Assembly (NCBI GenBank): GCA_934754775.1 | Contig: CAKVIM010000003.1 | Coordinates: 62,001-126,000 of the forward strand | DNA length: 64,000 nucleotides | DNA from: an uncultured Candidatus Melainabacteria bacterium | Lineage (GTDB): Bacteria; Cyanobacteriota; Vampirovibrionia; Gastranaerophilales; Gastranaerophilaceae | Direction of reading: 5' to 3' | In this document: positions 28,885-59,099 of the stretch, in pieces | How positions within the stretch are numbered: position 1 is the first letter of the stretch | How the letters are laid out: each line of letters opens with the position of its first letter | The notes under the pieces: generated by a model | Databases searched by the model: none | Told to the model about the DNA's origin: nothing | The model's input: the letters and a program-made list of their open reading frames with translations, nothing else | Translations under genes and position numbers: made by a program

Positions 28885-28968
28885 ACAAATGGTATGGAAA
28901 ACCAAAAGGTTTTTCATACCTCCTCCCCAAGTCTGGTAGCCGTTCTCTTAAGAAACGGCTTTTTTTTA
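28885..28968 (+). ncRNA. candidate small RNA with C-rich anti-Shine-Dalgarno loop
   Basis: A 13-bp hairpin (28891-28920, arms GGTATGGAAAACC and GGTTTTTCATACC with one wobble) is followed by an unpaired CCTCCTCCCC (28919-28928) and then by a rho-independent terminator (AGCCGTT/AACGGCT, 28938-28960, T8 tail). This order, hairpin, CU-rich single strand, terminator, is that of cyanobacterial Yfr1 and of several CU-rich regulatory RNAs that pair with ribosome sites. No clear promoter was found, and the sequence is not identical to the Yfr1 core. Confidence 0.4.
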
Positions 28969-29790
28969 TGCCTTTTCATATTGGCTGTAATACTTCATTA
29001 CTCTGTTTACATATACAGAAGTTTCTCCGTTTTGAGGAATTTTGCCGTTTCTAACATTTCCGGGGCCTGCATTATAAGCCGCTAGAGCTAAACGTTTGTT
29101 GCCATTATATCTGTCAAGCATTTGACGCAAGTATTTCGTGCCGCCACGTATATTTTGCTCAGGGTCTAACGGATTGGTTACACCCAGCTCTTTTGCCGTG
29201 TCAGGCATTAACTGCATAAGTCCTTTTGCACCTGCTTTTGATTTGCAGTTCGGGTTAAAATCAGACTCTGTAGTAATAACCGCTTTTATTAAGTTCGGTT
29301 CAATATTGTATTGTTTTGCGTATTTATTGATTAAATCTGCGTACTTGCCCGTTGCTTGCGTTCCTGAGCCCTGTGTTCCGGAGCTATTTGTTATTGTCGA
29401 AGAGTCTGTGTTTAGACAAGGTAAATTTAGCGGTGGAAGATTGAAAGCAGTAGTGCTTGGCATACTTGAAGATTGAAGTTGGAATGTATCCATCCCGCTA
29501 AAAGTTGGCATACTAAAAGAACCGCTGTTGTTATTTAATTCAAAACTAGGCAAAGGCGGCATACTAAAATCTTGTGTGAGCGGAAGATAACTGTTTTGAG
29601 GAATAGTTGGTACCATAAACAAGCTTGCATCGTTATAGCAGGAGCCCATATTAAATCCGCCAAACGGACTGCCCCAAATGCTACACCCAAAATTATTGAA
29701 CCCGTTGAAACAGCCCAAAAACGGATTGTTGTTAAACATTCCGAGCAAAAATCCGTTTGTGAAGTTGTTCCAAAAATTAGTCGTGCTCAT
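28966..29790 (-). CDS. lytic transglycosylase (SLT domain) without signal peptide
   Basis: A 274-residue protein. The C-terminal half (about 148-272) is a soluble lytic transglycosylase/goose-lysozyme domain: [34 protein letters not shown] with the catalytic Glu, then [13 protein letters not shown] and [13 protein letters not shown]. The first 145 residues are Asn/Phe/Gly/Pro/Ser-rich and start [10 protein letters not shown] with no export signal. How it reaches peptidoglycan is unclear: cell lysis, a holin-like path or a special secretion system. It shares promoter architecture with the gene at 29899 and with the ribbon-helix-helix gene at 58831. Confidence 0.82.
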
Positions 29791-29804
29791 AGCAATCTCT
29801 TTAT

Positions 29805-29853
29805 ATATACTCTATATATATAAAGTCAAGCAAAGCAAAATAATTGCCTTTTT
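29805..29853 (-). promoter_or_regulatory. shared regulatory promoter, copy A
   Basis: On the + strand TATAAAGTCA (29819-29828), 13 bases, AATTGCCTTTTT (29842-29853). Read on the minus strand this is AAAAAGGCAATT, 13 bases, TTGACT-like -35 (TGACTTTATA) and a TATATA -10. The same layout occurs at 30770-30804 and 59065-59099. The distance from the box to the ATG is the same as in copy B (29 bases). Confidence 0.6.
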
Positions 29854-29898
29854 TGTAAATAAAAGTAACAAAATAGGGCAAAAATTTAAAAAATGATA

Positions 29899-30741
29899 TT
29901 AAGCGTAATAACTCTTCAAACGGTTTGCGAGCTCAGTTTTAGTGATTTTCCCATCCTTATTGGCGTCCAGACCTTTGTTTGCACTATAGTATTTGTCGTT
30001 TCGTGTTGATAAAACTTCTCTTTTTGCATAAGCAGGCAGGAAGTTTATTGAATACAATGTTCCGGTATCCAATACTTGATTTGCACTATATCCTGCATTT
30101 CTCTTGTTCATTAATATATATTTTTCTACGTATGTAAGTTGTTCTACTGCGGACATTCGCTTAAGTGCTGTGGTTGTAGTACCGATTTCTCTTGCTGTGT
30201 CCGGCATAAATTGGATTAATCCTGTGGCACCGCTACTTCTATTAACCGTTGTGGTCTTTAAACCGCTTTCTGAATACATCATAGCCATCAAGTCGTTAGC
30301 TGAACATTTGACTTTTTTAGCGATTTCTACAACCTTATTATAGAACTCGTTACTAAGGTTTTTATTTCTCTTAGACCAAGTTTTCTTAAGTTCAGCTGCA
30401 GTGCAGTTCAAATCTACCGGTTCAGAAGAACCCGATTCATTAGAACCGAATGTTCCTGAGAAAGAAGGTAGTGGTGGGAGTTGAAAATTGAATGCCGGTA
30501 ATTGTATGTTGAAACCAAGATTTGAACTGTTAAACGCCGGTAAAGACATGTTGAAATTTAAGTTTGAACTGTCAAATGCCGGCATTTTAATATTAAAATT
30601 TCCAATATTACTACCAAATATTGGCGGCATAATATTATTGCCGTATCTGCCATACTGAATGCATGGCGTTGGCATAAACACATTGTTTAGTGTTGATAAT
30701 AAATTATTCATATAATGATTGTAATAACATTCGAAGCTCAT
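29899..30741 (-). CDS. second lytic transglycosylase-like protein, signal-less, with EF-hand-like tail
   Basis: A 280-residue paralogue of the neighbouring protein. An N-terminal part without signal peptide holds three imperfect copies of a 15-residue unit (SSNLxFNxxLPAFN, about 47-95). A lysozyme/SLT domain follows (about 125-245) with Glu in MMYSESGLK and GATGLIQFMPDTAREIG. The C-terminus has a calcium-loop-like DANKDGKITKTEL (about 258-270), as in EF-hand or dockerin loops. The second conserved half of the SLT motif (AYNAGPGN) is replaced, so activity may differ. Start has GCAGGA upstream. Confidence 0.72.
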   Translation of the reverse strand: MSFECYYNHYMNNLLSTLNNVFMPTPCIQYGRYGNNIMPPIFGSNIGNFNIKMPAFDSSNLNFNMSLPAFNSSNLGFNIQLPAFNFQLPPLPSFSGTFGSNESGSSEPVDLNCTAAELKKTWSKRNKNLSNEFYNKVVEIAKKVKCSANDLMAMMYSESGLKTTTVNRSSGATGLIQFMPDTAREIGTTTTALKRMSAVEQLTYVEKYILMNKRNAGYSANQVLDTGTLYSINFLPAYAKREVLSTRNDKYYSANKGLDANKDGKITKTELANRLKSYYA

Positions 30742-30753
30742 AATATCCTGCGT

Positions 30754-30804
30754 ATATATTCTTTATATTTATAAAGTCATGTTTTGTTAAATAATTGTCT
30801 TTTT
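30754..30804 (-). promoter_or_regulatory. shared regulatory promoter, copy B
   Basis: TATAAAGTCA (30770-30779), 13 bases, AATTGTCTTTTT (30793-30804) on the + strand, upstream of the gene at 30741; the ftsH promoter region lies on the other side of the same 120-base spacer. Homology to copy A extends further into TGTAAATAAAA. Confidence 0.6.
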
Positions 30805-30861
30805 GTAAATAAAACGTTACATTTATGTTATAATTATATGGAACATTTATGAGGGAGAACT

Positions 30862-32730
30862 ATGAACAAAAATCAATCGGTAGGTATGTACGTAATTCTT
30901 GGAATTATGGTTTTAGCATTTGTTTCAATGCTCTTTAGCGGCCCGACTTCCAGCACAGAAGAATTGTCTTACACAAATTTTATACAGAAAGTAGAAAACA
31001 AAGAAATTAAGAGTGTTGATTTAGGTAAAGATGCTTTGGTTGCTCTTCCTGTAAAACAACCGGAAGCTAAAACAAGCACAAATCCTATATATGGCGAAGT
31101 TAAAGCTCCAAAACTCCAGTACAAAGTTGTACTTCCTGATAATTCAGATGTTTTGACAAAATTGGAAGAAAATAATGTTGAAATCAGTGCAAAGAAAGCT
31201 GATTCAGGCTCACCGTTCGGTTTAGGTTCATCATTAATAACAATTTTACTCGTTTTAGGGTTCATAATGCTTATCATTAAATCAATTCAGGCGGGTGGAG
31301 CTCAAGCTATGTCTTTTGGCAAAAGCAGAGCTAAAATGCTTATGGATAGCAAAGTTAAGACAACTTTTAACGATGTTGCAGGGATTGATGAAGAGAAAAA
31401 AGAACTCGAAGAAATCGTTGATTTTCTAAAACATTCAGACAAATATGTTAAACTGGGTGCGAAGATTCCGAAAGGTGTACTTTTAGTAGGTTCTCCGGGT
31501 ACAGGTAAAACTCTTATGGCAAAAGCTGTTGCCGGTGAAGCAGGTGTTCCATTCTTCTCAATTAGCGGTTCAGATTTCGTTGAAATGTTCGTAGGTGTTG
31601 GTGCATCCCGTGTTAGAGATTTGTTTGAACAAGCTAAAAAACATCAGCCTTGTATTGTATTTATTGATGAAATTGATGCGGTTGGTCGTCAAAGAGGTGC
31701 CGGTTTAGGCGGTGGTCACGACGAAAGAGAACAAACCCTTAACCAATTACTGGTTGAGATGGATGGTTTTGACGAAAACACTAATATTATAATTTTAGCT
31801 GCGACAAACAGACCGGACATTTTGGATAACGCACTCCTTAGACCCGGAAGATTTGACAGGCAAATCGTTATTAATAAGCCTGACGTTTTAGGTCGTGAGC
31901 AGATTTTGAACGTACACGCAAAAAACAAACCTTTAGCAAAAGAAGTTGATTTAAAGACTTTGGCAAAGCGTACTCCGGGATTTACCGGTGCAGACCTTTC
32001 AAATCTTTTGAATGAAGCAGCTCTTCTTGCTGCTCGTCACGACAAATCAGAAATTGAAATGCCGGATTTAGAGGAAGCTATTGATAAAGTTATGGCAGGG
32101 CCTGAAAAGAAAAGCAGAATTATTTCTGACGAAGAAAAAGAAAACACAGCTTATCACGAAGTTGGTCACGCACTTTTGGCAAAATTGCTTAAGGATTGTG
32201 ATCCATTGCACAAAGTTTCAATTATTCCACGTGGTATGGCTCTTGGTATAACACTTACATTGCCGGAAAAAGACCATTTGACAATGCGTAAAAATCAATT
32301 GCTTGATAGAATTGCAATGATTTTGGGCGGACGTGTCGCAGAAGAATTAATCTATGGCAAGGACAACGTTACAACAGGTGCTTCAAACGATTTAGAAAAA
32401 GTTTCAAACCTTGCACGCAGCATGGTTACAACGTATGGTATGAGTGACAAGATGGGAAATCTGGCTTACGGAAAAGACCAAGAACACGTGTTTATGGGAA
32501 GAAACTTCGGTAACACAAGAGATTTTTCAGAAGAAATCGCTGCTGATATAGACAAAGAAGTTAAGAAAATTGTTGACGCTCAATATGAACACGCTAAAAA
32601 TCTTTTGAGTGAAAACAGAGACATGTTGGAATATATTGCACATACTCTACTTGATAAAGAAACTCTTGACGAAAAAGAATTCGAAGATTTGATGAACGAG
32701 GTTAGAGAAAGAAGGGAAAACGAAAATTAA
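30862..32730 (+). CDS. ftsH: ATP-dependent zinc metalloprotease FtsH
   Basis: A 622-residue membrane-anchored AAA+ protease that degrades damaged membrane and regulatory proteins. Two helices (7-27 and 123-142) flank a periplasmic domain; then come Walker A GSPGTGKT (210-217), Walker B IVFIDEID (265-272), the second region of homology [18 protein letters not shown] and the zinc site HEVGH (432-436; Val instead of the common Ala). Start follows GAGGGAGAAC. It is divergent from the lytic transglycosylase gene. Length and order are normal. Confidence 0.96.
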
Positions 32731-32733
32731 ACA

Positions 32734-32810
32734 GTAAGGGAATAAAGTAATAGGGCAATAAGGGAATAAGAGGTTTAAAATTTCTTTTTGTATATTACGC
32801 TTTTTAAACG
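32734..32810 (+). repeat. AATAAGG-type dispersed repeat, single arm
   Basis: The spacer after ftsH has tandem units such as GGGCAATAAGGGAATAAG followed by AGGTTTAAAATT and TATATTACGC. The same order of units and flank occurs twice, as an inverted pair, at 46431-46568. Confidence 0.6.
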
Positions 32811-32860
32811 AATTATTAATTAAGAATTATCTTAAATCTAAACGAAAGGATAAATAATAA

Positions 32861-33346
32861 ATGGATAGAGAAGAGCTTATTTTTAGTGAATACAAAACAT
32901 ATTGTGAGCAGAAAGAAAAATTTATTGACAGAAACTTTAAAACAAATAAATTTTATATGATTGCTGCAGTTGTTTTGATTTTTGCAATGATATACACAGG
33001 TAATGTAGTTTTCCTGAACAAAATTTCTGCAACGCTTGTCTTTGCTCTGTTTGGGGTCTCTGTTTGTGCCTTGTGGTGGATGAACGTTGATTCTTATAAC
33101 ACCTTAATCAAAATAAAATACTCAACCGTTATCGAAAAATTGGAAGAAAAATTGCCGGTAAAACCTTTTACAGAGGAGTATAAAGGGATTGCGGACTTTA
33201 GAGAAAAAAGAGTGTTTATGTTCTCTGATATTCAAAAAATCTTTGCTTCAATTGTTGCACTTTTCTTCTTTGCGGTTTGTGTAAGCGAGCTTACGCCGAT
33301 TCTTGTAGTATTATTCAACAAACTTAATTGTTTAATAAGAGGTTAA
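32861..33346 (+). CDS. RipA-family membrane protein
   Basis: A 161-residue integral membrane protein with two N-terminal helices (about 29-70) and one C-terminal helix (about 128-155). Between them lies WWMNVDSYNTLIKIKYSTVIEKLEEKLPVKPF (75-106), the W-W-x-x-x-x-x-Y-x-x-L-x-x-x-K-Y-x-V-I-x-x-x-E-x-x-L-P pattern of the RipA family of octameric membrane proteins known from Francisella. The biochemical role is not established. Start has AAAGGATA upstream. It is followed at four bases by the PAP2 gene and then by a glycosyltransferase-like gene, one probable envelope operon. Confidence 0.6.
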   Translation: MDREELIFSEYKTYCEQKEKFIDRNFKTNKFYMIAAVVLIFAMIYTGNVVFLNKISATLVFALFGVSVCALWWMNVDSYNTLIKIKYSTVIEKLEEKLPVKPFTEEYKGIADFREKRVFMFSDIQKIFASIVALFFFAVCVSELTPILVVLFNKLNCLIRG

Positions 33347-33350
33347 TGGA

Positions 33351-33977
33351 ATGGCTAGACAAAAAGAATATGGAATGGCACTAAACTGGAATTATGTAAT
33401 CCTCTCTGTTGTTATGGTTGCAATATTTACGCTTGTTGTAATGTATGTCCCAAATATAAGAGAAATTGACGGAAATATACTTCATTCAATCAGATTGGCA
33501 CTTTCGCCGTATCCGATTTCTTATGCTCAATTTATTTCCGAATTCGGTCGTGCAAATCATATGCTATGGCCTCAAATTGCGGCAGGAAGCGTACTTATTT
33601 CGCATAGAAAATACACAAAGTGCTTTTTGTTGATATTTTTTACTCAAGCAACCTTCTTTGTAACTGATTTACTTAAGAATTTTGTTTGCAGAGAACGCCC
33701 AGGATATATGTGCTATCCGGGATTTAGTTTCCCATCAGGTCACTCATCAACGACAATGTGTTTTCTAGGAATTCTGATTTATCTTGTGCTACACTATTGC
33801 AAAACTGATTTTTGGAGATATTTCCTAACTGGTTTGTTTGGTTTATGGATAGTGTTGGTTGGTATTTCAAGAATGTGGTTGGGTGTGCATTTCCCAATAG
33901 ACGTGCTTTGCGGAATGTTCCTTGGTTTCTTGATGGTAAACTTGTTTATTATAGTTTCTAAAGCATTGAGCAAATAA
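33351..33977 (+). CDS. PAP2-family membrane phosphatase
   Basis: A 208-residue membrane enzyme of the type 2 phosphatidic-acid phosphatase family with all three motifs: KNFVCRERP (about 108-116), PSGHSST (126-132) and SRMWLGVHFPIDV (174-186). Six hydrophobic helices. Substrates in the family include undecaprenyl pyrophosphate, lipid A phosphates and phosphatidylglycerophosphate; the operon context with a RipA-like membrane protein and a sugar-transferase-like protein points to envelope lipid or carrier recycling. Start after GAGG, four bases from the previous stop. Confidence 0.85.
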   Translation: MARQKEYGMALNWNYVILSVVMVAIFTLVVMYVPNIREIDGNILHSIRLALSPYPISYAQFISEFGRANHMLWPQIAAGSVLISHRKYTKCFLLIFFTQATFFVTDLLKNFVCRERPGYMCYPGFSFPSGHSSTTMCFLGILIYLVLHYCKTDFWRYFLTGLFGLWIVLVGISRMWLGVHFPIDVLCGMFLGFLMVNLFIIVSKALSK

Positions 33978-33978
33978 T

Positions 33979-34962
33979 ATGAAAATACTTGTCACATATC
34001 CGAATAGTATCGCAGGAACGCTTATTCTGAAAGGATTTGCAGAAGGTTTTCGTCAAAATGGCTGCAGGGTTTTAGCAAAAGACTTGCGTGAGCTTAAACC
34101 CGAAGAAGTCAATGCGTTTGAACCTGATATGATTCTTGGGTATGACTATGGTTTTTTGTTCTATGATAATCCTGAATTAAATCAGGTTATTTTGAATTCG
34201 TCAGCAAAAATCGTCAGCTATTTTGCGGATGAGCCTTGCGGGAAATTTGCGGTAGTAGAGCAAAGTGAACTCTTTAATAAATTTTTATCAATTGCTAAAA
34301 CAGGAAGAATAGTTTCTTATATCTGGGATAAGGATTTTGTTTTAAATATTCCGAACACTAAGTATTTGCCGCTTGCAGCCGATATTGAGAAGTATTCAAA
34401 ATATCCGCAAGGGAATTATAAATATGAGATTTCGTTCGTCGGACGTCCTCTTACAGATGTAAGGCAGCGGAATTTGGCTCAAATTGTTAAACATTTTGGT
34501 GACAAGTTGAGTATTTTTTCTTACGAGAAACATTTTTTGCGAAGTATAGAAGAGATTAAACCTCTGCTTACTCCGGATGAACTTGAGTTATACAAAGCTG
34601 CTTACAAAGGGTTTTTGAAAACAGAAGAAGAACTTGCTCAAGTCTATTCAGAGTCCAAAATTAATCTCAATATAACGCTTCAAGGAAGCTCTAATCTCAA
34701 TTACCGTGTGTTTGAAGTGCTTGCCTCAAAAGCGTTTTTGATTACGGATTATATGCAAGATTTGGAAGAGCTTTTCAGGATTGGTACTGATTTGGTAACG
34801 TATAAAAACACAGACGAACTTATCAAGCAAGTTGAGCTATATATCGGCGATGCGAAACTTCGGGAACAAATTGCCAGAAATGGCTTTGAACGAGTAAAGG
34901 CTGAACACACCTACTGTGCAAGAGCGAAAACAATTCTTGATGATGTTTTTATGGTATACTGA
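33979..34962 (+). CDS. CgeB-like glycosyltransferase (GT-B fold)
   Basis: A 327-residue cytosolic protein. The N-terminal domain starts MKILVTYPNSIAGTLILKGF and resembles DUF3880-type domains; YEISFVGRPLTDVRQRNL (141-158) opens the second Rossmann-like domain, and KINLNITLQGSSNLNYRVFEVLASKAFLITDY (about 225-256) is the nucleotide-sugar-binding E-x7-E region of CgeB/Glyco_trans_1 proteins, followed by the C-terminal helix HTYCARAKTIL. It lies one base after the PAP2 gene. Donor and acceptor are unknown; envelope glycan is a reasonable guess from context. Confidence 0.75.
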   Translation: MKILVTYPNSIAGTLILKGFAEGFRQNGCRVLAKDLRELKPEEVNAFEPDMILGYDYGFLFYDNPELNQVILNSSAKIVSYFADEPCGKFAVVEQSELFNKFLSIAKTGRIVSYIWDKDFVLNIPNTKYLPLAADIEKYSKYPQGNYKYEISFVGRPLTDVRQRNLAQIVKHFGDKLSIFSYEKHFLRSIEEIKPLLTPDELELYKAAYKGFLKTEEELAQVYSESKINLNITLQGSSNLNYRVFEVLASKAFLITDYMQDLEELFRIGTDLVTYKNTDELIKQVELYIGDAKLREQIARNGFERVKAEHTYCARAKTILDDVFMVY

Positions 34963-34975
34963 AATTGAAATAAAT

Positions 34976-35051
34976 GCGGTTGTAGCTCAGTAGGATAGAG
35001 CGGAGGTTTCCTAAACCTTGTCTGCCGTGGGTTCGACTCCCTCCAGCCGCA
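34976..35051 (+). tRNA. tRNA-Arg (CCT)
   Basis: Acceptor GCGGTTG/CAGCCGC, anticodon stem GAGGT/ACCTT with CCT, T arm GTGGGTTCGACTCCCTC, discriminator A, no encoded CCA. Its last 11 bases plus 12 bases downstream are duplicated at 35268-35290. Confidence 0.92.
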
Positions 35052-35290
35052 TACTTTTTCTGTAGAAAAAGTATGCAAAAAGACTTTTTACATATTGTCG
35101 GGTGACAAATAAAAACGCCAACAATTATTTAAAAATTAAAGGTCACCCTCTTTTGTGCAATCCCAAGCCCTTTGGTTTTTGTCGTCCGTCTCACGCACCA
35201 AGCATAGCTTGGTGGGTTCTTACCTCTCGAAAAACGTGACATTGAGTCACCTTTTTCTCGGCAGAGTCTCCAGCCGCATACTTTTTCTGT
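35041..35290. repeat. direct repeat of the tRNA-Arg 3' end flanking 204 bp (attachment-site-like)
   Basis: A perfect 23-bp direct repeat at 35041-35063 and 35268-35290 starts inside the tRNA T-stem/acceptor (CTCCAGCCGCA) and ends in ACTTTTTCTGT. Between the copies lie an inverted repeat GGGTGAC (35100)/GTCACCC (35142), a hairpin CACCAAGC-ATA-GCTTGGTG (35196-35214) and no reading frame. tRNA-Arg(CCU) 3' ends are common integrase targets. This looks like attL and attR left around a shrunken element, or a scar. The remaining spacer up to 35386 holds only the promoter region of the sigma factor gene. Confidence 0.55.
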
Positions 35291-35386
35291 TAATTTTAAT
35301 CCCTTCTTAAAAAATCCTAACTATATGGAACTTTTTTCTTGACTCGTCGTCTTATTAATTAGAATAGCAAGAGGAGATTAGTTAAG

Positions 35387-39355: not shown

Positions 39356-41092
39356 TTACTTCACTGTCAGTACATTTTGTCCGAGTTCGTGATTAGCAGC
39401 TTCCGCAATCTTTTTGGCTAAATCGGCATAAACTCTTCTTGAAAAATGGTTTATGCAAGTCGTGTAATCGTCATCATTTTGGATAAATTCAGTAAGCTCG
39501 ATAAATCCAACTCGTCCGGCAAACGTCTTTCGAACGGCTTCGTTTAAAATCTTATGACGCTCTGCCATATTTTCATATCCGGCTTGAACCTTATCTGTCG
39601 GAATTTCGCTCCCCAAAATCAAGAACAGCTTAGCCTTTAGGTGTTCTAATATGTATTCAATATTCTTAAGAACAAGCTCTACCGGCGGATTTCCGCCAAA
39701 TGTATAGTTCTTTTTGAACTCTTGCAGCATCATGAGATTTGCGGCTCTTGCTTCAGCAGGAATTGGTGCAAGGATTTTCTCCCAATTATTTTCATCCGTA
39801 ATGTCACAATCTGCAAAGCCAAAGAACGCATAAGTTCCGTCGGTTTTGTTTATATAAATACCGCTATGAGTGACTGTTAGTAAACTCAAAAAGATAATAT
39901 TATACTTTTCGTCAAAAAAATTGGTTTTAAATTCGTCCGCATTTGGAAACGGAAAACGTTTTGTGAGTCCATCCCGTTCAGCCTTTGAAAGCCTATGAGT
40001 TTGCTCAATAAAAGCTGTATGAGTATGAGCCAAAATATACACAAGTTGTTTATTCCAATAAGGGAATTCTGTATCAATATTACACTCGCCATCAAGATAA
40101 TTCAGTGTGGAATACAAGTCGCATGGACCTTTGAACAAAATATTGATGGTATTCTGTTTAACCTTAGGCTTTGCTTTTAACTCGAGATTGTCGACTAATG
40201 TTATCCAATTCACTTCGCCTTCAAGCTTTGAGGCAACTTCGCCTTCGATTTCAATTTCAGGTTTCCCAAGATAAGAATAGACAAATTGTTCAATTCCCAT
40301 ATTCATAATTCGGCAAGAAAATAGGAAGTGGACAAGTTTATTTTTCGTTCTATCCAATGAATAGAATCCGCAAATCCCGTAATTGCCGTATTTATCTTCA
40401 GCTATAATATAAGCAGAGTCTGTGTTTTGGATTGTCGTTTCAAGGTTTTCATCTCGAAGCTTTGTAAAATTGAGCTGATTTGTTCGGCTTATTAATTTTT
40501 TTAGCCTATCAATATTTTTAAGACAATCTTTTTTTATGCAGATTTTTATATCGCTTGATACCAAAAACTCTTTATTTGAGTTGGCATTGAGTTTCTGTAT
40601 AGACTTTTCTTCCAATATTTTGTACTGTTTAAGCCTTGTATGCTCAAAATCGTAGTCATTTACCAGATACAACTCTTCTGCAATTTTATGGAGATTTTCA
40701 GGAGTTGCTGTCATAATTTCGGGTATATAAAACTTAACTTCATTGATATTGATTTCATTATCGTCAATAAAAATTACATTTTCCGCCCTTAAATTCATTG
40801 ATTTTATGATATTATTTACTCGTCCGGCTTTTGCAGACCAATCAATAGACGGGAATACAAACATGTCCCAAACATCTTTCAAGCCTGATTCAATAAACTT
40901 CGACTTAGCAAGCTCGAAATCATTCTTAGAGCAGATAGAATTCATTATACCTTTGGTCGTAAGTTCTCGGACAAGCTCTACATTCTCAAACCGAAATTGA
41001 ACATTGCCTTCGCTTAATGTGCCGTCCCAGAAGGTTTCGTCCAAATCCCAAATTATTAGTTTTGTTTTAGTTATATCGTAATCTTTTTTCAC
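39356..41092 (-). CDS. FkbH-like HAD protein with C-terminal SGNH-like domain
   Basis: A 578-residue protein. Residues 11-150 are an HAD-type domain with DLDETFWDG (Asp16, Asp18) and the late motif FIDDNEININE, typical of FkbH enzymes that load phosphoglycerate-derived units onto carrier proteins; residues 165-300 form the linked acyltransferase-like part with NQLNFT, a usual FkbH element. The last 260 residues look like an SGNH-hydrolase-type domain (for example LFLILGSEIPTDK..GYENMAERHKILNEAVR). No polyketide synthase or acyl-carrier gene is near. The start is GTG. It is 81 bases downstream of atpC. Confidence 0.7.
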   Translation of the reverse strand: MKKDYDITKTKLIIWDLDETFWDGTLSEGNVQFRFENVELVRELTTKGIMNSICSKNDFELAKSKFIESGLKDVWDMFVFPSIDWSAKAGRVNNIIKSMNLRAENVIFIDDNEININEVKFYIPEIMTATPENLHKIAEELYLVNDYDFEHTRLKQYKILEEKSIQKLNANSNKEFLVSSDIKICIKKDCLKNIDRLKKLISRTNQLNFTKLRDENLETTIQNTDSAYIIAEDKYGNYGICGFYSLDRTKNKLVHFLFSCRIMNMGIEQFVYSYLGKPEIEIEGEVASKLEGEVNWITLVDNLELKAKPKVKQNTINILFKGPCDLYSTLNYLDGECNIDTEFPYWNKQLVYILAHTHTAFIEQTHRLSKAERDGLTKRFPFPNADEFKTNFFDEKYNIIFLSLLTVTHSGIYINKTDGTYAFFGFADCDITDENNWEKILAPIPAEARAANLMMLQEFKKNYTFGGNPPVELVLKNIEYILEHLKAKLFLILGSEIPTDKVQAGYENMAERHKILNEAVRKTFAGRVGFIELTEFIQNDDDYTTCINHFSRRVYADLAKKIAEAANHELGQNVLTVK

Positions 41093-53255: not shown

Positions 53256-53766
53256 TATTATTCTCGTTGGAATGCCGGCAAGTGGAAAATCTACAATTGG
53301 TGAACTTCTTAGCGAAGCCCTTCCGAATTATCTGCATATTGATATCGATAGCGTTATTGAAAGAACCAACGGGATGAAAATAAGCGAAATTTTCTCAAAA
53401 TTTTCTGAGGATTATTTTCGCAAGCTTGAGTATGATACGATAAAAATGGTTTGCACAGGAAATAACAAAATTATCTCCACAGGCGGCGGTTCATTCGAAA
53501 ATCCTGATAATCGTGCAACATTGCTTCGGTTTGGAAAAGTATTTTATTTGAAATCTGACCTTGATGTACTATATTATAGAATATCAAAGGATTCTACAAG
53601 ACCACTTTTACAGAATGAAAATCCACGTCAGGTCTTGGAAGATTTGATAAGAAAACGAGAAGAAAATTACGAAAAGGCTCACTATACAGTAGATACAAGC
53701 GAGCTGAGCGAAGATGAAATTATAAGGTTTATATTAAATGAGACAAACTCTCAAGGTTCAAATTAG
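53245..53766 (+). CDS. aroK: shikimate kinase
   Basis: Phosphorylates shikimate. 173 residues with the P-loop GMPASGKS (9-16), the shikimate-binding DIDS (32-35), FRKLE (about 53-57) and STGGGSF (72-78). It starts inside aroC (11-base overlap) and ends inside aroB (29-base overlap), so the three are co-translated. Confidence 0.94.
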   Translation: MGNNIILVGMPASGKSTIGELLSEALPNYLHIDIDSVIERTNGMKISEIFSKFSEDYFRKLEYDTIKMVCTGNNKIISTGGGSFENPDNRATLLRFGKVFYLKSDLDVLYYRISKDSTRPLLQNENPRQVLEDLIRKREENYEKAHYTVDTSELSEDEIIRFILNETNSQGSN

Positions 53767-54826
53767 CGAAAATAAAGAATACAATATTTATATTTCAGAC
53801 GATAGTTTTTCAAAGTTAAGCCGTGAGTTGGAAGAATATACTCACAACAAAAAGCGGCTAATCGTTATTTCGAAAAAGGTACATAAGCTTTATGGCGAAC
53901 AATTCAAGTTTAATGAAGACGAATTGTTTGTGTTTCCGGATGGTGAAAAAGAAAAAAATATAAATAACTATCTTAAGATTGTTCAAAAAGCTATTGCAAT
54001 AGGTTTAACAAGAGATGATGTAATTGTTGCAATCGGTGGCGGCGTTGTAGGCGATATCGCAGGGTTTGTCGCTTCTACATATATGCGTGGAATTGATTTT
54101 ATTCAAGTTCCAACAACCCTTCTGGCTGCGGTGGACTCTTCTGTGGGCGGGAAAACGGCAATTGACTTAAAAGAAGCAAAAAATATTATTGGCTCATTCT
54201 ATCAGCCGAAAGTCGTTCTTATCAATATTAATTTTCTTGATACATTGGATGAAAGGCAGTATTTGTCAGGTATGGGCGAGGTTTTGAAGTATGCATTTAT
54301 TGAGGATAATTGCAACTACAAAATGTCGCTTTATCTCTTTGAGTTTCTGACTTTAGGCTGCGAAAAGATTTTGCAAAGGGAGCCGCTTACTGTCATCAGG
54401 ATGATTGAATATTGCTTGAATTTGAAAATTGCAGTGGTTAATCAGGACGAAAAAGAAAGCGGTTTGAGAAAAATCTTGAACTTTGGGCATACATTTGCTC
54501 ACGCATTGGAAACCATTACCAAGTATAAAAAATACACCCACGGTGAAGCTGTCGTATATGGCATGTTTTTTATAATCAATTGGGCGTATAAAAAGCAGTA
54601 CATAACATATTCTTATTACAGATTATCTCTGGAACTATTGGAAAAATATGGGTTTAAGCCTTATCCGATTTCAACATTACCGGTTGAGAAGTTTGTTGAA
54701 ATTATGCAAAAAGATAAGAAGGCTAGTTCAGAAAAAATCACTTTCATAATACCATGTGACAAAAAGAAGGTTAAAGAAATTAAACTTTCTCCTCTTGAAG
54801 TCGAATTTATGTTTAAGGAGCTATAA
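53738..54826 (+). CDS. aroB: 3-dehydroquinate synthase
   Basis: Second step of the shikimate pathway, NAD and metal dependent. 362 residues with GGGVVGDIAGFVAST (about 101-115), PTTLLAAVDSSVGGKTAID, the Lys/Glu segment GMGEVLKYAFI and the metal ligands in NFGHTFAHALE and HGEAV. Overlaps aroK by 29 bases; the next gene starts on the base after its stop. Confidence 0.95.
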   Translation: MRQTLKVQISENKEYNIYISDDSFSKLSRELEEYTHNKKRLIVISKKVHKLYGEQFKFNEDELFVFPDGEKEKNINNYLKIVQKAIAIGLTRDDVIVAIGGGVVGDIAGFVASTYMRGIDFIQVPTTLLAAVDSSVGGKTAIDLKEAKNIIGSFYQPKVVLININFLDTLDERQYLSGMGEVLKYAFIEDNCNYKMSLYLFEFLTLGCEKILQREPLTVIRMIEYCLNLKIAVVNQDEKESGLRKILNFGHTFAHALETITKYKKYTHGEAVVYGMFFIINWAYKKQYITYSYYRLSLELLEKYGFKPYPISTLPVEKFVEIMQKDKKASSEKITFIIPCDKKKVKEIKLSPLEVEFMFKEL

Positions 54827-55501
54827 ATGCGTACGGTAGAAGTTTTTGCGGGAGCTTATGCAAGCGGGAAGTCCGAAACTTCAATAAATCGGGCTCGTCA
54901 ATTTGCAGAAGCGGGAAAATCAGTTACACTCGTGGATTTGGATACGGTTGAGCCTGCTTATACGTTGCGTCCGATTGCAGGTGATTTGGAAAAAATGGGA
55001 ATCAGAGTCATAACTCAGCCCGATAATTTTGGCTTGGGAGAAGCTGCAAGTTATGTTACGGCTGCTCAGACAAACTGTTTGGCTCAAGAAGGCGATATGA
55101 TTATTGATGTTGGCTACGGTGCAGGCGGGTTGGACATTTTAGATATTTTGAATAATATTGACAAAGAAACAAATCTGAAAATTTATTTGGTTGTGAATAC
55201 TTCCAAATTTGAAACTTCAACCGTTGAAAATATTATTGAGTATGTGACTTTTGCAGAAGGACTTGAAAAACGAGAGTGGAAGAAGTTTTCCGGCATGATA
55301 TCTAATACGCACTTTGGCGATGAAACTACCTCAGAAGATATCATAAGAGGGTATAAAAAACTAAAAGAAGCGTCTCACAAGCTAAATATTCCGATTCGAG
55401 CAATCGGGGTCGACGAAAAATTGGCAAAAGATTTTAGCGAAACCTATGACGGAGTCGATGTTTGGGTTTACAAACGTATGATGCCAAAAGCGTTTTGGTA
55501 G
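54827..55501 (+). CDS. P-loop ATPase-like protein (MinD/CobB-like), aro operon
   Basis: A 224-residue protein with a Walker A-like GAYASGKSETS (9-19), then VTLVDLDTVEPAYTLRPIA (33-51), as in MinD/ParA/CobQ-type ATPases where the second Asp binds the metal, and MIIDVGYGAGGLDIL (91-105). It lacks the signature deviant-Walker lysine at the start of the loop, so it is not a typical MinD. It follows aroB without a spacer. Role unknown; the operon link may be only transcriptional. Confidence 0.6.
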   Translation: MRTVEVFAGAYASGKSETSINRARQFAEAGKSVTLVDLDTVEPAYTLRPIAGDLEKMGIRVITQPDNFGLGEAASYVTAAQTNCLAQEGDMIIDVGYGAGGLDILDILNNIDKETNLKIYLVVNTSKFETSTVENIIEYVTFAEGLEKREWKKFSGMISNTHFGDETTSEDIIRGYKKLKEASHKLNIPIRAIGVDEKLAKDFSETYDGVDVWVYKRMMPKAFW

Positions 55502-55502
55502 G

Positions 55503-56039
55503 TTATCCTATCAAATAATTAGAATGTGGCACTGATTTAAACCCATTTTTTTTGTAAAATGGAATCAGCTCTTTTGTTGCAGGAAATAGAATTGTTTTTT
55601 TATCTGGGAATAATTCTCTAACTCTTTGTAATATTGAACTTCCGACGTGTTTAAATAAGTCCTCACCACCATGGTTTACTTGAACAAAGTCAATAATATT
55701 ACATTTGTCGGAATGTTTACTTAATTGTAGTAATCCCAATATGTTTGCAGGTTTGATTTTGTCAAATCCGTCCTTTTGCTTTGTAATTGCAAAAAATCGT
55801 CTTTTTAAATCCGGAAACTCGTCTTGCATGCGAAAAACTAATTCAGCACTTTCGGCTATGCATTCTGCGAAATTTGGTTGGCTATTCCAGTCGGATACAG
55901 CATCGATTATGGATGTAACATCATTAAGCTCTTTGGGGTTAAATTCTATAAATGCAGTTTTACAAGGATTGTAGCAATTTCTTGTATCTTTTTTCAGTAT
56001 TTCGGCTGTGTTTATATATCGTGCTTGGAATGTTATCAT
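55503..56039 (-). CDS. GNAT-like acetyltransferase
   Basis: A protein of 178 residues from the ATG at 56039, chosen because GAGG lies seven bases upstream. The C-terminal part VGSSILQRVRELFPDKKTILFPATKELIPFYKKNGFK (about 135-171) is a GNAT acetyl-CoA fold ending. The N-terminal half is less clear. It begins MITFQARYINTAEI; the TFQAR peptide belongs to the short N-terminal motif seen in three other proteins here. It is downstream of the ABC permease gene by 42 bases and may be co-transcribed. Confidence 0.6.
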   Translation of the reverse strand: MITFQARYINTAEILKKDTRNCYNPCKTAFIEFNPKELNDVTSIIDAVSDWNSQPNFAECIAESAELVFRMQDEFPDLKRRFFAITKQKDGFDKIKPANILGLLQLSKHSDKCNIIDFVQVNHGGEDLFKHVGSSILQRVRELFPDKKTILFPATKELIPFYKKNGFKSVPHSNYLIG

Positions 56040-56081
56040 TTTTTTCCTCAATTATTTAAAAGTACGTAAAAATATTTTTTG

Positions 56082-56888
56082 CTACTCTTTTATCGCACCT
56101 TCCATTGGATTGTTGATGAGGTAGTTTTTGCCCAGAATAAAAATTATGATAACAGGAATAGAGCAAATGCAAGCACAAGCCATTAATTCGCCCCACATTG
56201 TAATTTCTCTAAATGAACTTTTGAAAATGGTTAATCCTACCGCTAAAGTTCGCATGCTTTCGGTATTCGTTACAATTAAAGGCCACATAAAACTGTTCCA
56301 AGTGGTAACAAAAGTAAATATGCTTAGAGTCGCAATTGCAGGTATAGCACAAGGTAGAGCAATCTTGAAGAAGGTTTGGACTGAATTACATCCATCAAGT
56401 CGTGAAGCTTCTTCCAATTCTTTTGAAAAATTTAAGAAATATTGACGCATCATAAACACACCAAATCCGCCAAATATTCCAGGTACGATTAACGCTTGGT
56501 AACTGTTTATCCAGCCGAGCTTACTCATAAGATAGAAAAGCGGAACAATGTTGACTTGCGGCGGAACCATCATTGTAAGGATTATGATAAAGAATAAAAT
56601 ATCGCATCCTTTGAACTTGAATCTTGCAAAGCCATAACCTGCAAGAGCGGAAATTATGACCTGTCCGACGGTTGTTGTCAGAGCGACAATCAAGCTGTTT
56701 AAGAAATATTTTATAACGGGTATTGATTCAAAAACATTATGGTACGCCTCAAATGAAAGATTTATGCCGGATGCGGAGTTCAAGATATTGTCTTCGCCTG
56801 TTAATGATATCAAAAACATTATTGCAAACGGAAATATCATTGAAACTGCCAATAATATAAGAACTGCATACATAAAAAATCTTTTCAT
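56082..56888 (-). CDS. carbohydrate ABC transporter permease (MalG/UgpE type), orphan
   Basis: A 268-residue inner-membrane permease with six helices and the EAA loop EEASRLDGCNSVQTFFKIALPCAIPAIAT (about 170-198), which docks onto the ATPase. This subfamily imports sugars or glycerol phosphates with a MalF-type partner, a binding protein and an ATPase; none of these is in the neighbourhood. TACAAT (56895-56900) ends six bases before the ATG, so it should have its own leaderless mRNA. It may pair with subunits encoded elsewhere. Confidence 0.85.
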   Translation of the reverse strand: MKRFFMYAVLILLAVSMIFPFAIMFLISLTGEDNILNSASGINLSFEAYHNVFESIPVIKYFLNSLIVALTTTVGQVIISALAGYGFARFKFKGCDILFFIIILTMMVPPQVNIVPLFYLMSKLGWINSYQALIVPGIFGGFGVFMMRQYFLNFSKELEEASRLDGCNSVQTFFKIALPCAIPAIATLSIFTFVTTWNSFMWPLIVTNTESMRTLAVGLTIFKSSFREITMWGELMACACICSIPVIIIFILGKNYLINNPMEGAIKE

Positions 56889-56906
56889 AAGACTATTGTA
56901 GTATAA

Positions 56907-56938
56907 AAAAAGACTTCCGAATATTCGGAAGTCTTTTT
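56907..56938 (-). terminator. terminator of tRNA-Pro
   Basis: AAAAAGACTTCCGAA/TTCGGAAGTCTTTTT hairpin with T run on the minus strand, immediately after the tRNA. Confidence 0.85.
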
Positions 56939-56941
56939 AAA

Positions 56942-57018
56942 TGGTCGGGATGACACGATTTGAACGTGCGACCCCCTCGTCCCAAGCGAGGTGCGCTACC
57001 AAACTGCGCTACATCCCG
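56942..57018 (-). tRNA. tRNA-Pro (TGG)
   Basis: Acceptor CGGGATG/CATCCCG, anticodon stem CCTCG/CGAGG with TGG, T arm GCACGTTCAAATCGTGT, discriminator A and encoded CCA. Confidence 0.94.
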
Positions 57019-57148
57019 ATGAGGTCAGTTGTGCTTAATTTATCTAAATTTCGGCACAAAAATATATTACAGTAAACAAACTTTAAAATCAAGCGTTAAT
57101 TTTTCTATAGTTTGCTCTTAAGGTTATTTGGTGTATAATTACCATGCT

Positions 57149-58768
57149 ATGGCGAATTTGGTTAGTGTTAATAAAAAGTTTACGGGTGCATCTTTATTAG
57201 TAGATACTCTTGTAAAGCTCGGTGTAGACAGTGTTTTTGGCTACCCTGGAGCTGCTGTGTTGAGCATTTATAACGAGCTAGCCAAAACACAATCAATTAA
57301 ACATTACCTCGTAAGACACGAACAAGCTGCTGTTCACGCAGCAGAAGGATACTCTCGTGTGAGCGGAAAAGTTGGTGTTGTTCTTGTGACTTCAGGCCCG
57401 GGGTTCACGAACACAATAACAGGGATTGCGAATGCAAATGCTGATTCTACGCCTCTTGTTGTATTAGCGGGAGATGTTTCTACTGTGAACAGGCAAGGCA
57501 AAGTTTTTCAGAACGTTGACATACTTTCGCTAACTAAATCGTGTGCTAAAAAATGTTTTATGCTCTCAAAAAACGATGAGATTGAAAACGTTATTGAAGA
57601 AGCGTTTCAGGTTGCGAATTCCGGCATAAAAGGCCCTGTAGTGGTTGCACTGCCTCGTAATTTATTAGAAGCGGAGTATTCCAAAATTGAAAAATCTAAA
57701 CCGGCTCAAACTCATCAAGTACCGAATTTGCGTCACGAAGTTTTAAAAATAGCCGAAATGATTAGAGAAGCTCAAAATCCTTTGGTACTAATTGGCGGTG
57801 GTTGTGTAAACGTAGCAAAAGAAATAGAGCAATTTATCTCACAGATTCAATGTCCGGTGGTTTCAACACTTATGGGTATTGGGGGTTATCCGTCAGAAAA
57901 TAATCTTTATCTTGGTATGATTGGGCTTAATGGAACATTACCTGCGAATTCTGCGATAAATCAGTGCGACTTGTTAATTACAATGGGTGTAGGTTTCTCA
58001 AACCGTTCTACCTGTTGTAAAAATAGTGAATTCGCACCAAATGCAAAAATAGTTAATATCAATATTGATAAAAACACTCAGTGCGGAGAATACAGCGTTT
58101 GTGCCGATGTTCGAGATTTCTTAGAAGAATTTCAAAAGCTTGCATGTGGTTTTGAACCAAAAGAACGTTGGTTGGTTCAAGTGGACGCACTCAAAGATGA
58201 ACTTGTTGTTCCGGAAGATTTTTCAGAATACCTGCACTCTTCATACGTATTAGAAACGGTTTCTGAATACACAAAATACTATGAACCGGTAGTTGTAACC
58301 GATGTCGGGCAGCACCAAATGTTAACCGCACAGTTTTTTAATTTCAACAAGCCGAGAAAATTTATAACCTCTGGCGGACTCGGTACGATGGGGTTTGGGC
58401 TTCCTGCCGCAATCGGGGCACACATCGCTAATCCTAAAAATCTTGTGCTAAATATTACGGGTGACGGCTCTTTTCAGATGAATCTTCAAGAACTTGCAAC
58501 CTGCAGAGAGCATAACATTCCGGTAAAAGTTATTATTATGAATAACAGTTATCTTGGGATGGTGCGTCAAATGCAGGAAAAAATTTATCACAAAATGTAT
58601 CAAGTCGAGATGATTAATCCTGATTTTACAAAAATTGCCGAAGCATACGATTTGTTCGCAATAAGAGTTCGCAAGAAAGAAGAACTTATTCCTGCCCTCG
58701 AAAAAGCAATTAACCATAATGGCACTGCAATTATCGATGTTGTGATAGATTCATTTGAAAATATTTAA
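57149..58768 (+). CDS. ilvB: acetolactate synthase-type ThDP enzyme (large subunit)
   Basis: A ThDP-dependent enzyme of 539 residues from the ATG at 57149; TATAAT (57134-57139) with TTGCTC upstream leaves a leader of only a few bases. The N-terminal FGYPGAAVLSIYNEL, the catalytic Glu in VRHEQAAVHAAEGYSR and the ThDP motif GDGSFQMNLQEL..NNSYLGMVRQMQ fit acetohydroxyacid synthase. It is a little shorter than IlvB of E. coli and no ilvN regulatory subunit is adjacent, so branched-chain synthesis or catabolic acetolactate formation are both possible. Confidence 0.85.
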   Translation: MANLVSVNKKFTGASLLVDTLVKLGVDSVFGYPGAAVLSIYNELAKTQSIKHYLVRHEQAAVHAAEGYSRVSGKVGVVLVTSGPGFTNTITGIANANADSTPLVVLAGDVSTVNRQGKVFQNVDILSLTKSCAKKCFMLSKNDEIENVIEEAFQVANSGIKGPVVVALPRNLLEAEYSKIEKSKPAQTHQVPNLRHEVLKIAEMIREAQNPLVLIGGGCVNVAKEIEQFISQIQCPVVSTLMGIGGYPSENNLYLGMIGLNGTLPANSAINQCDLLITMGVGFSNRSTCCKNSEFAPNAKIVNINIDKNTQCGEYSVCADVRDFLEEFQKLACGFEPKERWLVQVDALKDELVVPEDFSEYLHSSYVLETVSEYTKYYEPVVVTDVGQHQMLTAQFFNFNKPRKFITSGGLGTMGFGLPAAIGAHIANPKNLVLNITGDGSFQMNLQELATCREHNIPVKVIIMNNSYLGMVRQMQEKIYHKMYQVEMINPDFTKIAEAYDLFAIRVRKKEELIPALEKAINHNGTAIIDVVIDSFENI

Positions 58769-58770
58769 TA

Positions 58771-58802
58771 AAAATAACCCGTCTAAAAGAACGGGTTATT
58801 TA
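58771..58802. terminator. bidirectional terminator between ilvB and the ribbon-helix-helix gene
   Basis: AAATAACCCGT/ACGGGTTATTT hairpin with flanking A and T runs. Confidence 0.8.
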
Positions 58803-58830
58803 AAATCCTTTATCTCCGCTTTACAAAACG

Positions 58831-59019
58831 CTAATCGAGCAAAGCTTCCAAAATAGCAGCGTTTTTGCCTGCGATTGTGTTTGATTTAATTCTGCTTTTA
58901 TACATATAGCTTCTCAAAGCTTCTCTAATCAATTCAGAACGGGTTCTGTTTTCACCCTCTGCAACTTGGTCGATTCTGTCTAAAAATTCTTCGGGCATTG
59001 AAATAAGTACTCTTGCCAT
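58831..59019 (-). CDS. ribbon-helix-helix (CopG-type) regulator
   Basis: A 62-residue protein: MARVLISMPEEFLDRIDQVAEGENRTRSELIREALRSYM is a complete ribbon-helix-helix fold, with the DNA-contacting strand at residues 2-8 and the RTRSELIREAL helix. Such dimers or tetramers bind short repeated operators and usually control their own gene. No toxin gene is adjacent, so it does not look like an antitoxin pair. Its promoter shares the architecture TATAAAGTCA-N13-AATTGCCTTTTT with the two lytic transglycosylase genes at 29-30.7 kb. Start after AAGGAGAAATAT. Confidence 0.85.
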   Translation of the reverse strand: MARVLISMPEEFLDRIDQVAEGENRTRSELIREALRSYMYKSRIKSNTIAGKNAAILEALLD

Positions 59020-59049
59020 ATATTTCTCCTTTACTATGTAATAACTTTT

Positions 59050-59099
59050 GATATCCTGTATATATATAAAGTCATGAAGAAATAAAAAATTGCCTTTTT
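59050..59099 (-). promoter_or_regulatory. shared regulatory promoter, copy C
   Basis: TATAAAGTCA (59065-59074), 13 bases, AATTGCCTTTTT (59088-59099) on the + strand, ahead of the ribbon-helix-helix gene; box-to-ATG distance is 46 bases, longer than in copies A and B. Confidence 0.6.

What the first reader, a model, noticed from the sequence alone, without database searches (positions are those of the whole stretch)
28966..59099. One promoter architecture shared by a ribbon-helix-helix gene and two signal-less lytic transglycosylases
TATAAAGTCA, exactly 13 bases, AATTGYCTTTTT occurs at 29819-29853, 30770-30804 and 59065-59099, each time just upstream of a minus-strand gene, while the intervening 13 bases differ. 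Read in the gene direction it gives AAAAAGRCAATT followed by a -35 (TGACTT) and a -10 (TATATA or TATCAA). A self-regulating RHH protein that also controls wall-lytic enzymes 28 kb away is the simplest explanation.
Basis: partly seen in the sequence, partly recalled or inferred. Interest (0 to 1): 0.8.

Follow-up and report, generated by a model that had tools for sequence, protein, structure and literature searches.

The report
New promoter class in gut Melainabacteria
The three matching stretches are copies of an on-switch that recurs about ten to sixty times per genome in a group of uncultured gut bacteria related to cyanobacteria, mostly in front of unknown proteins without a normal export tag, and it is more likely read by a specialised sigma factor than by the small DNA-binding protein first proposed.

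Summary
The three 35-base boxes are exact, with no matches in shuffles. The window's RHH protein is identical to one in a Gastranaerophilales (Melainabacteria) genome, G002.

The box is a widespread promoter element. Its general form WRGCAMTTT-N15-YTTTAT occurs 802 times in 37 of 37 order genomes, against 14 for the reversed pattern. Of 22 strict G002 sites, 21 precede a same-strand ORF by 16-51 nt. So TGACTT is no -35: the right half holds the -10, AAAGGCAATT the -35.

Best candidate reader: a divergent group-2 sigma factor ('sigma-D', [KR]EC[IV]RQxE). Outside the order sample its signature was found in 9 of 12 box-rich and 0 of 18 box-poor genomes. Against: five box-rich genomes without detected sigma-D (G009, G022, G071, G076, G081), and no biochemistry. 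The RHH gene is the most recurrent regulon member; as master regulator it is unsupported but not excluded.

Box-driven proteins (119 in 59 families) are mostly unknown, rarely show a Sec signal and have Ser/Thr/Asn/Gln/Pro-rich N-termini. I infer, without direct evidence, substrates of a flagellum-like type III exporter.

The parts
29818..29851 (-). Box 1: AAAGGCAATT (29851-29842, -35 position) N15 ACTTTATAT (29826-29818, -10 region), 27 nt before the ATG of the SLT gene
30769..30802 (-). Box 2: AAAGACAATT (30802-30793) N15 ACTTTATAA (30777-30769), 27 nt before the ATG of the second SLT-like gene; divergent from ftsH
59064..59097 (-). Box 3: AAAGGCAATT (59097-59088) N15 ACTTTATAT (59072-59064), 44 nt before the ATG of the RHH gene
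28966..29790 (-). 274-aa protein P0001: Asn/Phe/Gly-rich N-terminus and C-terminal lytic transglycosylase SLT domain (residues 153-249)
   Evidence: PF01464 118 bits; no Sec signal seen by eye
29611..29790 (-). N-terminal module (about residues 1-60, MSxxNFWxNFTxGFxxGMFNxNPFxGC) shared with other wall hydrolases carrying different catalytic domains
29899..30741 (-). 280-aa protein P0002: low-complexity N-terminus, partial SLT domain (141-191), C-terminal EF-hand-like loop (below Pfam cut-off)
   Evidence: 67% identical over 166 residues to a G002 protein with the P0001-type N-terminus
58831..59019 (-). 62-aa CopG-type ribbon-helix-helix protein P0003; the most recurrent product among the box-driven ORFs held
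   Evidence: PF01402 38 bits; homologues in 31 of 32 order genomes searched; 24 of 119 box-driven proteins
30862..32730 (+). ftsH, divergent neighbour of box 2; in G004 (L422) an ftsH start is likewise divergent from a hydrolase with the P0001-type N-terminus and a box-like site

Best explanation
The box is the core promoter (-35 block AAAAAGGCAATTTT, nearly rigid 15-base spacer, -10 block ACTTTATATATA; general form RGCAMTTT-N15-YTTTAT) of a regulon of roughly 10-60 sites per genome, found in every Gastranaerophilales genome tested with the general form and in part of the other Vampirovibrionia. Shown by computation: the element, its position, spacing, conservation and gene set. Inferred: it is read by a dedicated, divergent group-2 sigma factor (sigma-D, G002:C9:46423 and orthologues) whose -35-contacting helix (TKECIRQTE instead of TRERIRQIE) and -10-contacting helix differ from RpoD. 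Also inferred: the regulon switches on proteins (wall hydrolases, many unknown small and low-complexity proteins) that leave the cell by a flagellum-like type III export apparatus, and the RHH protein is a co-expressed feedback regulator rather than the master.
For: Promoter: 802 sites against 14 reversed-control sites in 37 of 37 genomes; 21 of 22 strict G002 sites precede a same-strand ORF by 16-51 nt, and 20 of 22 overlap no called ORF of 60 aa or more; two further A's and ATA are conserved outside the search pattern. Spacing: in 290 loci not fetched by a box search plus the window, 33 general sites at the box spacing against 3 at +1 and 0-1 at each other gap tried. Footprint: in front of 30 RHH orthologues the core GCAMTTT-N15-YTTTAT is within 300 nt with at most 1 mismatch in 26, against 16 of 300 random windows of the same loci. 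Sigma-D: detected in 21 of 23 order genomes examined (G001-G005 and 16 of 18 more); RpoD, which must be there, is also undetected in 2 of these 23 (G020, G037), so that miss rate fits incomplete MAGs. G025 shows only RpoD, B, C and D, yet has 24 boxes. C was not detected in G003 and G004, which have boxes. B and RpoD keep canonical contact residues. Wider class: signature in 9 of 12 box-rich and 0 of 18 box-poor genomes, Fisher p 1.5e-5 uncorrected for kinship. Covariation: the 8 genomes whose sigma-D has MF at sigma70 439-440 (numbering recalled) have the ACTTTAT form in 50-96% of boxes; the 13 others read have at most 41%. Cargo.
Against: Sigma-D was not detected in two order genomes with 16 and 18 boxes (G009: eight sigma hits, seven classified, the eighth a 203-aa frame that matched no seed; G022: five hits, all classified). 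Box-rich G071, G076 and G081 outside the order sample gave no signature either (G076 has a diverged sigma, L413; not every match of G071 and G081 was listed). By the strict logic that I use against FliA and the ECFs in G025, these five would speak against sigma-D. The near-fixed spacing is stricter than for most sigma factors (recalled). Co-occurrence and covariation follow phylogeny and are not independent events. In the 15 sigma-D neighbourhoods printed no box lies directly in front of it. Not all sigma genes of the box-poor genomes were retrieved. The secretion route is inference: only FHIPEP was sought, all 20 genomes tested have it and no box-poor genome was tested, so it does not discriminate.
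Confidence: 0.5

Rival explanations
1. The RHH protein binds the box (as a NikR-like tetramer on AAAGNCA-N16-TGACTTT half-sites), regulates its own gene and is the master regulator of the regulon.
For: The box core is in front of most RHH orthologues (26 of 30 with at most 1 mismatch within 300 nt), and the RHH gene is the most frequent box-driven product held (24 of 119). Some boxes are near-perfect inverted repeats, e.g. L027, L053, L001. NCBIfam scores it weakly to a nickel responsive regulator, 27 bits against a cut-off of 111. Near-fixed spacing fits one rigid protein.
Against: Most strict boxes in G002 lack the TGAC half (T 13, G 5 of 22 at that column), and other lineages use TAGCAC...TGTTTTTAT without a dyad. 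MARVLIS is invariant while the box letters change. G025 has 24 boxes and no RHH hit. It would still need a sigma factor for a promoter without TTGACA.
Confidence: 0.16
2. A class-II activator binds AAAAAGGCAATTTT over the -35 and recruits RpoD (or group-2 sigma B) polymerase, which reads only the TATATA -10.
For: The -10 block TATATA resembles a sigma70 -10, while the -35 block is unlike TTGACA; the left block extends to about -43. Sigma-D was undetected in five box-rich genomes.
Against: The letters just upstream of TATATA (TGACTT, TGTTTT, TACTTT) are also conserved and change by lineage together with sigma-D residues. No activator candidate was identified or searched for systematically.
Confidence: 0.22
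3. Another alternative sigma (FliA, the SigB/F-type E, or an ECF) reads the box.
For: FliA, E and ECF-G are in all five first genomes; in G003 fliA lies next to the box-driven RHH gene.
Against: None of these was detected in G025, which has 24 boxes; FliA was not detected in G022 either. These are MAGs, so the absences are weak. The box does not resemble sigma28, ECF or sigma54 consensus promoters (recalled).
Confidence: 0.1

Closest known systems
HrpL / hrp-box regulon (ECF sigma controlling type III secretion; papers seen only as search listing with abstract starts)
   Same: A dedicated sigma factor, two short blocks about 15 bases apart, promoters of many proteins without Sec signals
   Different: Sigma-D is a group-2-type protein, not ECF; the letters differ from GGAACC-N15/16-CCACNNA (recalled); type III export of the products is not shown
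Group 2 sigma factors and RpoS-like sigma factors
   Same: The best NCBIfam models for two sigma-D proteins are of the RpoD/SigA/RpoS kind, and MzaA, all below their curated cut-offs
   Different: Region 4.2 [KR]EC[IV]RQxE and altered region 2.4; a non-TTGACA -35
NikR and other RHH operators
   Same: Half-sites about two helical turns apart in some boxes; RHH gene in the regulon
   Different: The dyad is not conserved; NikR has a C-terminal metal domain (recalled) absent from the 62-aa protein
Flagellum of Melainabacteria (PMC3787301, passages read)
   Same: Flagellar export genes present; [quoted passage not shown]
   Different: The terms sigma and type III do not occur in its main text; here the export apparatus is proposed to serve a box-driven cargo set

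Membership tests
Promoter class of an alternative sigma factor | Two conserved blocks at fixed spacing, oriented, just upstream of genes | tested here: met
   21 of 22 strict G002 sites; spacing 33 vs 3 at +1 and 0-1 at other gaps
Promoter class of an alternative sigma factor | A sigma factor that co-occurs with the promoter | tested here: inconclusive
   9 of 12 box-rich vs 0 of 18 box-poor and 21 of 23 order genomes, but five box-rich genomes without detected signature
Promoter class of an alternative sigma factor | Sigma DNA-contact residues differ from RpoD | tested here: met
   which residues touch DNA is recalled
Promoter class of an alternative sigma factor | Holoenzyme initiates at the box | not testable with these tools
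   needs in vitro transcription or a reporter
RHH (CopG/NikR-like) operator | Symmetric or repeated half-sites in all targets | tested here: not met
RHH (CopG/NikR-like) operator | RHH gene present wherever the operator is | tested here: inconclusive
   31 of 32 order genomes have a homologue; G025 has boxes but no hit; not tested in the wider class
RHH (CopG/NikR-like) operator | Protein binds the site | not testable with these tools
   EMSA needed
Sigma28 (FliA) promoter | TAAA-N15-GCCGATAA (recalled) | tested here: not met
   Box letters differ; of two flagellin upstream regions read, neither matched my sigma28 pattern nor, by eye, an exact box
Type III secretion substrates | No Sec signal, Ser/Thr/Asn/Pro-rich N-terminus | tested here: met
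   S,T,N,Q,P 0.366 vs 0.258 in residues 2-30, p 5e-9; crude Sec signal 1 of 59 vs 228 of 1553, p 0.002 (home-made gene calls and rule; suggestive only)
Type III secretion substrates | Secretion dependent on the export gate | not testable with these tools
   no experiment

The most novel reading that the evidence does not exclude
A previously undescribed sigma factor and promoter class, old enough to span much of Vampirovibrionia, commands the cargo of a stripped-down flagellar type III export apparatus, so that gut Melainabacteria which have lost their filaments keep a secretion machine and a dedicated transcriptional programme for it, including wall hydrolases exported through an Asn/Phe/Gly-rich N-terminal module.
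Probability: 0.22. Interest if true: 0.85.

Novelty: new variant of a known kind. Interest (0 to 1): 0.65.

Why it matters
The non-photosynthetic sisters of cyanobacteria are common in animal guts, mostly uncultured, and little is known of how they deal with host or neighbours. A promoter class that can be found by a simple pattern gives a ready list of some 60 protein families, most of unknown function, that are probably expressed together and perhaps exported, plus one testable sigma factor. It would also suggest why filament-less genomes keep a flagellar export apparatus.

Tried and rejected
Rejected: TGACTT as -35 (start codon too close). Box as a dyad operator in general. Chance. Judged unlikely, on weak grounds because the genomes are MAGs: FliA, SigF-type and ECF sigma factors (not detected in G025) and sigma C (not detected in G003 and G004). 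Sigma-D itself fails the same kind of test in G009 and G022.

Led nowhere: whole genome of the window is not held. Pfam for box-driven proteins: of 15 scanned from G002 loci one passes a curated cut-off (HEAT repeats, L122); with the three window proteins and two hydrolases it is 6 of 20. The protein search with P0001 over 14 genomes returned mostly other transglycosylases whose fetched loci had no box in front; relatives with the same N-terminus came from G001, G002 and G004, with box-like sites 2-3 mismatches away from the strict form. A database search with P0001 residues 1-70 gave 6 proteins, the query's own cluster among them. Flagellin promoters did not show a canonical sigma28 site, so FliA specificity in this clade stays unknown. 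Literature: Gastranaerophilales with type III secretion (2 papers, off topic by listing), Gastranaerophilales with sigma factor (0), Melainabacteria with sigma factor and promoter (1, off topic by listing), Vampirovibrionia with type III secretion (2, off topic by listing), Melainabacteria with flagella and secretion system (10; passages of two read). These cover only the open library.

Changed on re-checking: sigma-D odds from 0.55 to 0.50 and the novel case from 0.25 to 0.22, because one search showed that G009 and G022 have no detectable sigma-D among their hits.
Full report
1. The observation. The pattern is exact at the three stated places and nowhere else in the window, even with 3 mismatches; 100 dinucleotide shuffles gave none. 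A 44-column weight matrix from 80 sites of other loci scores the three at 49, 44 and 34 bits. The best other place in the window is the reverse strand of site 2 (1.2 bits), then -12.7. The genes are an SLT transglycosylase (P0001), a second protein with half an SLT domain and an EF-hand-like loop below cut-off (P0002) and a 62-aa RHH protein (P0003).

2. Where it comes from. No whole genome is held for the window. An exact scan of GTDB-species contigs with AAAAGNCAATT-N13-TGACTTTAT found 55 stretches. Of the 55 titles, 24 say Gastranaerophilales, 3 say cyanobacterium, Cyanobacteria or Melainabacteria, 14 are unnamed bacteria (many with the same genes downstream) and 14 bear other names. Of these 14 one (L019, titled Acinetobacter) has the RHH gene; in the other 13 I saw no recognisable regulon gene and take them as chance hits. 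The window's RHH protein is letter for letter that of G002, a Gastranaerophilales MAG.

3. A promoter class, not a local repeat. In five genomes the box with up to 2 mismatches occurs 19-37 times, against 0-3 for the reversed pattern. The strict form AAARNCAATT-N15-ACTTTATAT is in 46 of 60 genomes drawn from the order, with no reversed-pattern hit in any of the 60. RHH orthologues from 30 genomes showed that the letters drift: window lineage AAAGGCAATT...TGACTTTAT, others TAGCACTTTT...TGTTTTTAT or TAGCAATTTT...TGTTTTTAT. The core GCAMTTT-N15-YTTTAT lies within 300 nt before the RHH start exactly in 22, with 1 mismatch in 4 and with 2 in 4 of 30; random 300-base windows of the same loci gave 13, 3 and 15 of 300. 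In L178, L179 and L197 the exact match is far, 217-236 nt upstream. The general form WRGCAMTTT-N15-YTTTAT gave 802 sites in 37 of 37 genomes (10-62 each) against 14 reversed (0-2 each).

4. Geometry. All 22 strict sites of G002 were looked at in context: 21 are followed, 16-51 nt downstream, by the start of a same-strand ORF, and one (L073) is not. Twenty overlap no called ORF of 60 aa or more; L119 overlaps a 65-aa and L073 a 76-aa ORF. Columns not fixed by the pattern are conserved too: A at -2 (22 of 22) and -1 (19), then A 22, T 18, A 19 after the pattern. Because the start codon can be 16-19 nt away, the -10 must be TATATA within the right block, which puts AAAAAGGCAATTTT at about -43 to -31 (positions inferred, no start site is mapped). 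In 290 loci not fetched by a box search (1.08 Mb) plus the window, the general form occurs 33 times at the box spacing, 3 times at +1, and 0-1 times at each other gap tried, -5 to -1 and +2 to +6.

5. Which protein reads it. Five genomes hold 6-8 sigma-70 region-2 matches each, which I sorted by BLAST into RpoD, B, C, D, E (SigB/F-type), F and G (ECF) and FliA. C was not detected in G003 or G004 and F not in G004 or G005, although these genomes have boxes. G025 has 24 boxes (2 in the control), yet only RpoD, B, C and D were detected in it. B and RpoD keep the canonical -35 helix; D has T, K, E, C, R, Q, T, E of TKECIRQTE invariant in the 19 order sequences of alignment A1, and its region 2.4 is changed (alignment to solved SigA chains). 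Residue numbers and DNA contacts of E. coli sigma70 are recalled. D was detected in G001-G005 (cut off before region 4 in G004) and in 16 of 18 further genomes, 21 of 23 in all. It was not detected in G009 (16 boxes; of eight hits seven are RpoD, B, C, E, F, G, FliA and the eighth, a 203-aa frame, matched no seed) or G022 (18 boxes; five hits: RpoD, B, C, E, G). As a yardstick, RpoD itself was not among the hits of G020 and G037, so two misses in 23 are what incomplete MAGs give; but it also means that single absences, such as FliA in G025, carry little weight.

6. Test outside the order sample. A class-wide draw of 107 genomes looks bimodal by eye: many with 0-4 sites, many with 8 or more, a few between. 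From its 74 new genomes I picked 12 box-rich (8-18 sites) and 18 box-poor (0-4 sites) and searched them with the D profile. Most of the best hits whose region 4 was read were RpoD- or B-like, so I fetched other sigma hits. The signature [KR]EC[IV]R[QK]xE was found in 9 of 12 box-rich genomes and 0 of 18 box-poor ones (Fisher p 1.5e-5, not corrected for kinship). Dropped or missing rows: the list was capped, and some listed hits in box-poor genomes were not fetched (for example one in G070 and two in G092). Against the model: G071, G076 and G081 have convincing boxes and no signature; G076 and box-poor G066 have a diverged sigma (L413, L416), and not every match of G071 and G081 was seen.

7. 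Covariation. The ACTTTAT form makes up 50-96% of boxes in the eight genomes whose D has Met-Phe at the two positions aligned with sigma70 439-440 (G001-G006, G019, G030), and 0-41% in the 13 others whose D I read (counts, residues). This is probably one clade against the rest, so it is consistent, not proof.

8. The RHH protein. It is the commonest box-driven product held (24 of 119) and has homologues in 31 of 32 order genomes, often several. It may well bind its own promoter: several boxes are inverted repeats (L027, L053, L001). But the dyad is not conserved, MARVLIS is constant in the 30 orthologues read while the box changes, and G025 gave no hit. I treat it as a regulon member and possible feedback regulator.

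9. The cargo. Across all loci held, 119 distinct ORFs start 8-75 nt after a box (median 36), in 59 BLAST families, 39 of them singletons. Of 15 box-driven proteins scanned one passes a Pfam cut-off; with the three window proteins and two hydrolases it is 6 of 20. Residues 2-30 are richer in S, T, N, Q, P (0.366 in 46 family representatives of at least 100 aa, against 0.258 in 1553 other ORFs, p 5e-9), and a crude Sec-signal rule fires in 1 of 59 against 228 of 1553 (p 0.002). Gene calls are home-made and some background ORFs will be spurious. The window's P0001 shares its N-terminus with proteins of G001, G002 and G004 (39% over 90 residues to G002's; G004; G001 by the hit and by eye). These carry a glucosaminidase domain (G001, G004; PF01832) or a P0002-type end (G002; 67% over 166 residues), each behind a box-like site with 2-3 mismatches to the strict form. 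So one N-terminal module with its promoter is fused to different wall hydrolases, in G004 again beside ftsH (L422).

10. A possible exporter. FHIPEP export-gate genes are in 20 of 20 genomes tested, 2-5 matches each; all 20 have boxes, so no box-poor genome was tested. One copy lies in what I read by eye as fliP-Q-R-flhB-flhA order (L152). A second lies with FliE-, FliF- and FliH-type genes (L159); its G002 orthologue scores below the curated cut-offs of both FlhA (698 of 772) and SctV (587 of 692). G019, G030, G036 and G052 show the second but not the first. In G003 a box follows the second gate gene and drives an 81-aa protein; paralogues, also behind a box, lie near the flagellar export genes of G003 and G002. 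[quoted passage not shown] I infer, without direct evidence, that the box cargo uses such an apparatus.

11. Verdict. Promoter class of an order-wide, partly class-wide regulon: about 0.9. Read by sigma-D: about 0.5. RHH as master: about 0.16. Exported cargo by type III: a working hypothesis.

Noticed in passing
L150:2175-3638 (G002) and the weaker full-frame matches: A third FHIPEP-like gene encodes about 490 aa with only the C-terminal part of FlhA/SctV (profile 321-655) behind an unrelated N-terminus: perhaps a free-standing export-gate ring domain.
   Followed up: partly
L159 (G003:C53) 6103-12540: FliE-FliF-unknown-FliH-FlhA2 cluster separate from the fliPQR-flhBA cluster, followed by a box-driven 81-aa protein; several MAGs show only this second gate gene.
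   Followed up: partly
window 29611-29790; L421, L422, L423: N-terminal module MSxxNFWxNFTxGFxxGMFNxNPFxGC shuffled onto SLT, partial SLT plus EF-hand-like, and glucosaminidase domains, each behind a box or box-like site.
   Followed up: yes
L382-L411 (G066, G071, G076, G081, G121): Box variant AGGCAATTT-N-TTGTTTTTATTA in class members outside the order sample, often in front of Ser/Thr/Asn-rich unknown proteins; in G071, G076 and G081 no sigma-D signature was found.
   Followed up: partly
L001, L027, L041, L053: Some boxes are near-perfect inverted repeats (AAAGTCAATT...AATTGACTTT), unlike most boxes; possibly an extra regulator's operator.
   Followed up: no
L013:2130 and L154:8465 upstream regions: Flagellin genes lack a canonical sigma28 promoter by my pattern; L154 has an AAAGCA...TGCTTTATATA dyad resembling the box with a longer gap.
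   Followed up: no
L019 (contig titled Acinetobacter): Contig from a MAG named Acinetobacter carries the Gastranaerophilales-type RHH gene and box, so the binning or the name is probably wrong.
   Followed up: no
L148:1445-1648 and L150:8314-8514 (G002): Short ORFs sharing the string TGKPVLFRSLSMLTHHVRG in two places of one contig, probably part of a dispersed repeat.
   Followed up: no
window 39356-41092 and 11469-12668: Large ORFs (578 and 399 aa) with no Pfam match at E 0.001; no box in front.
   Followed up: no
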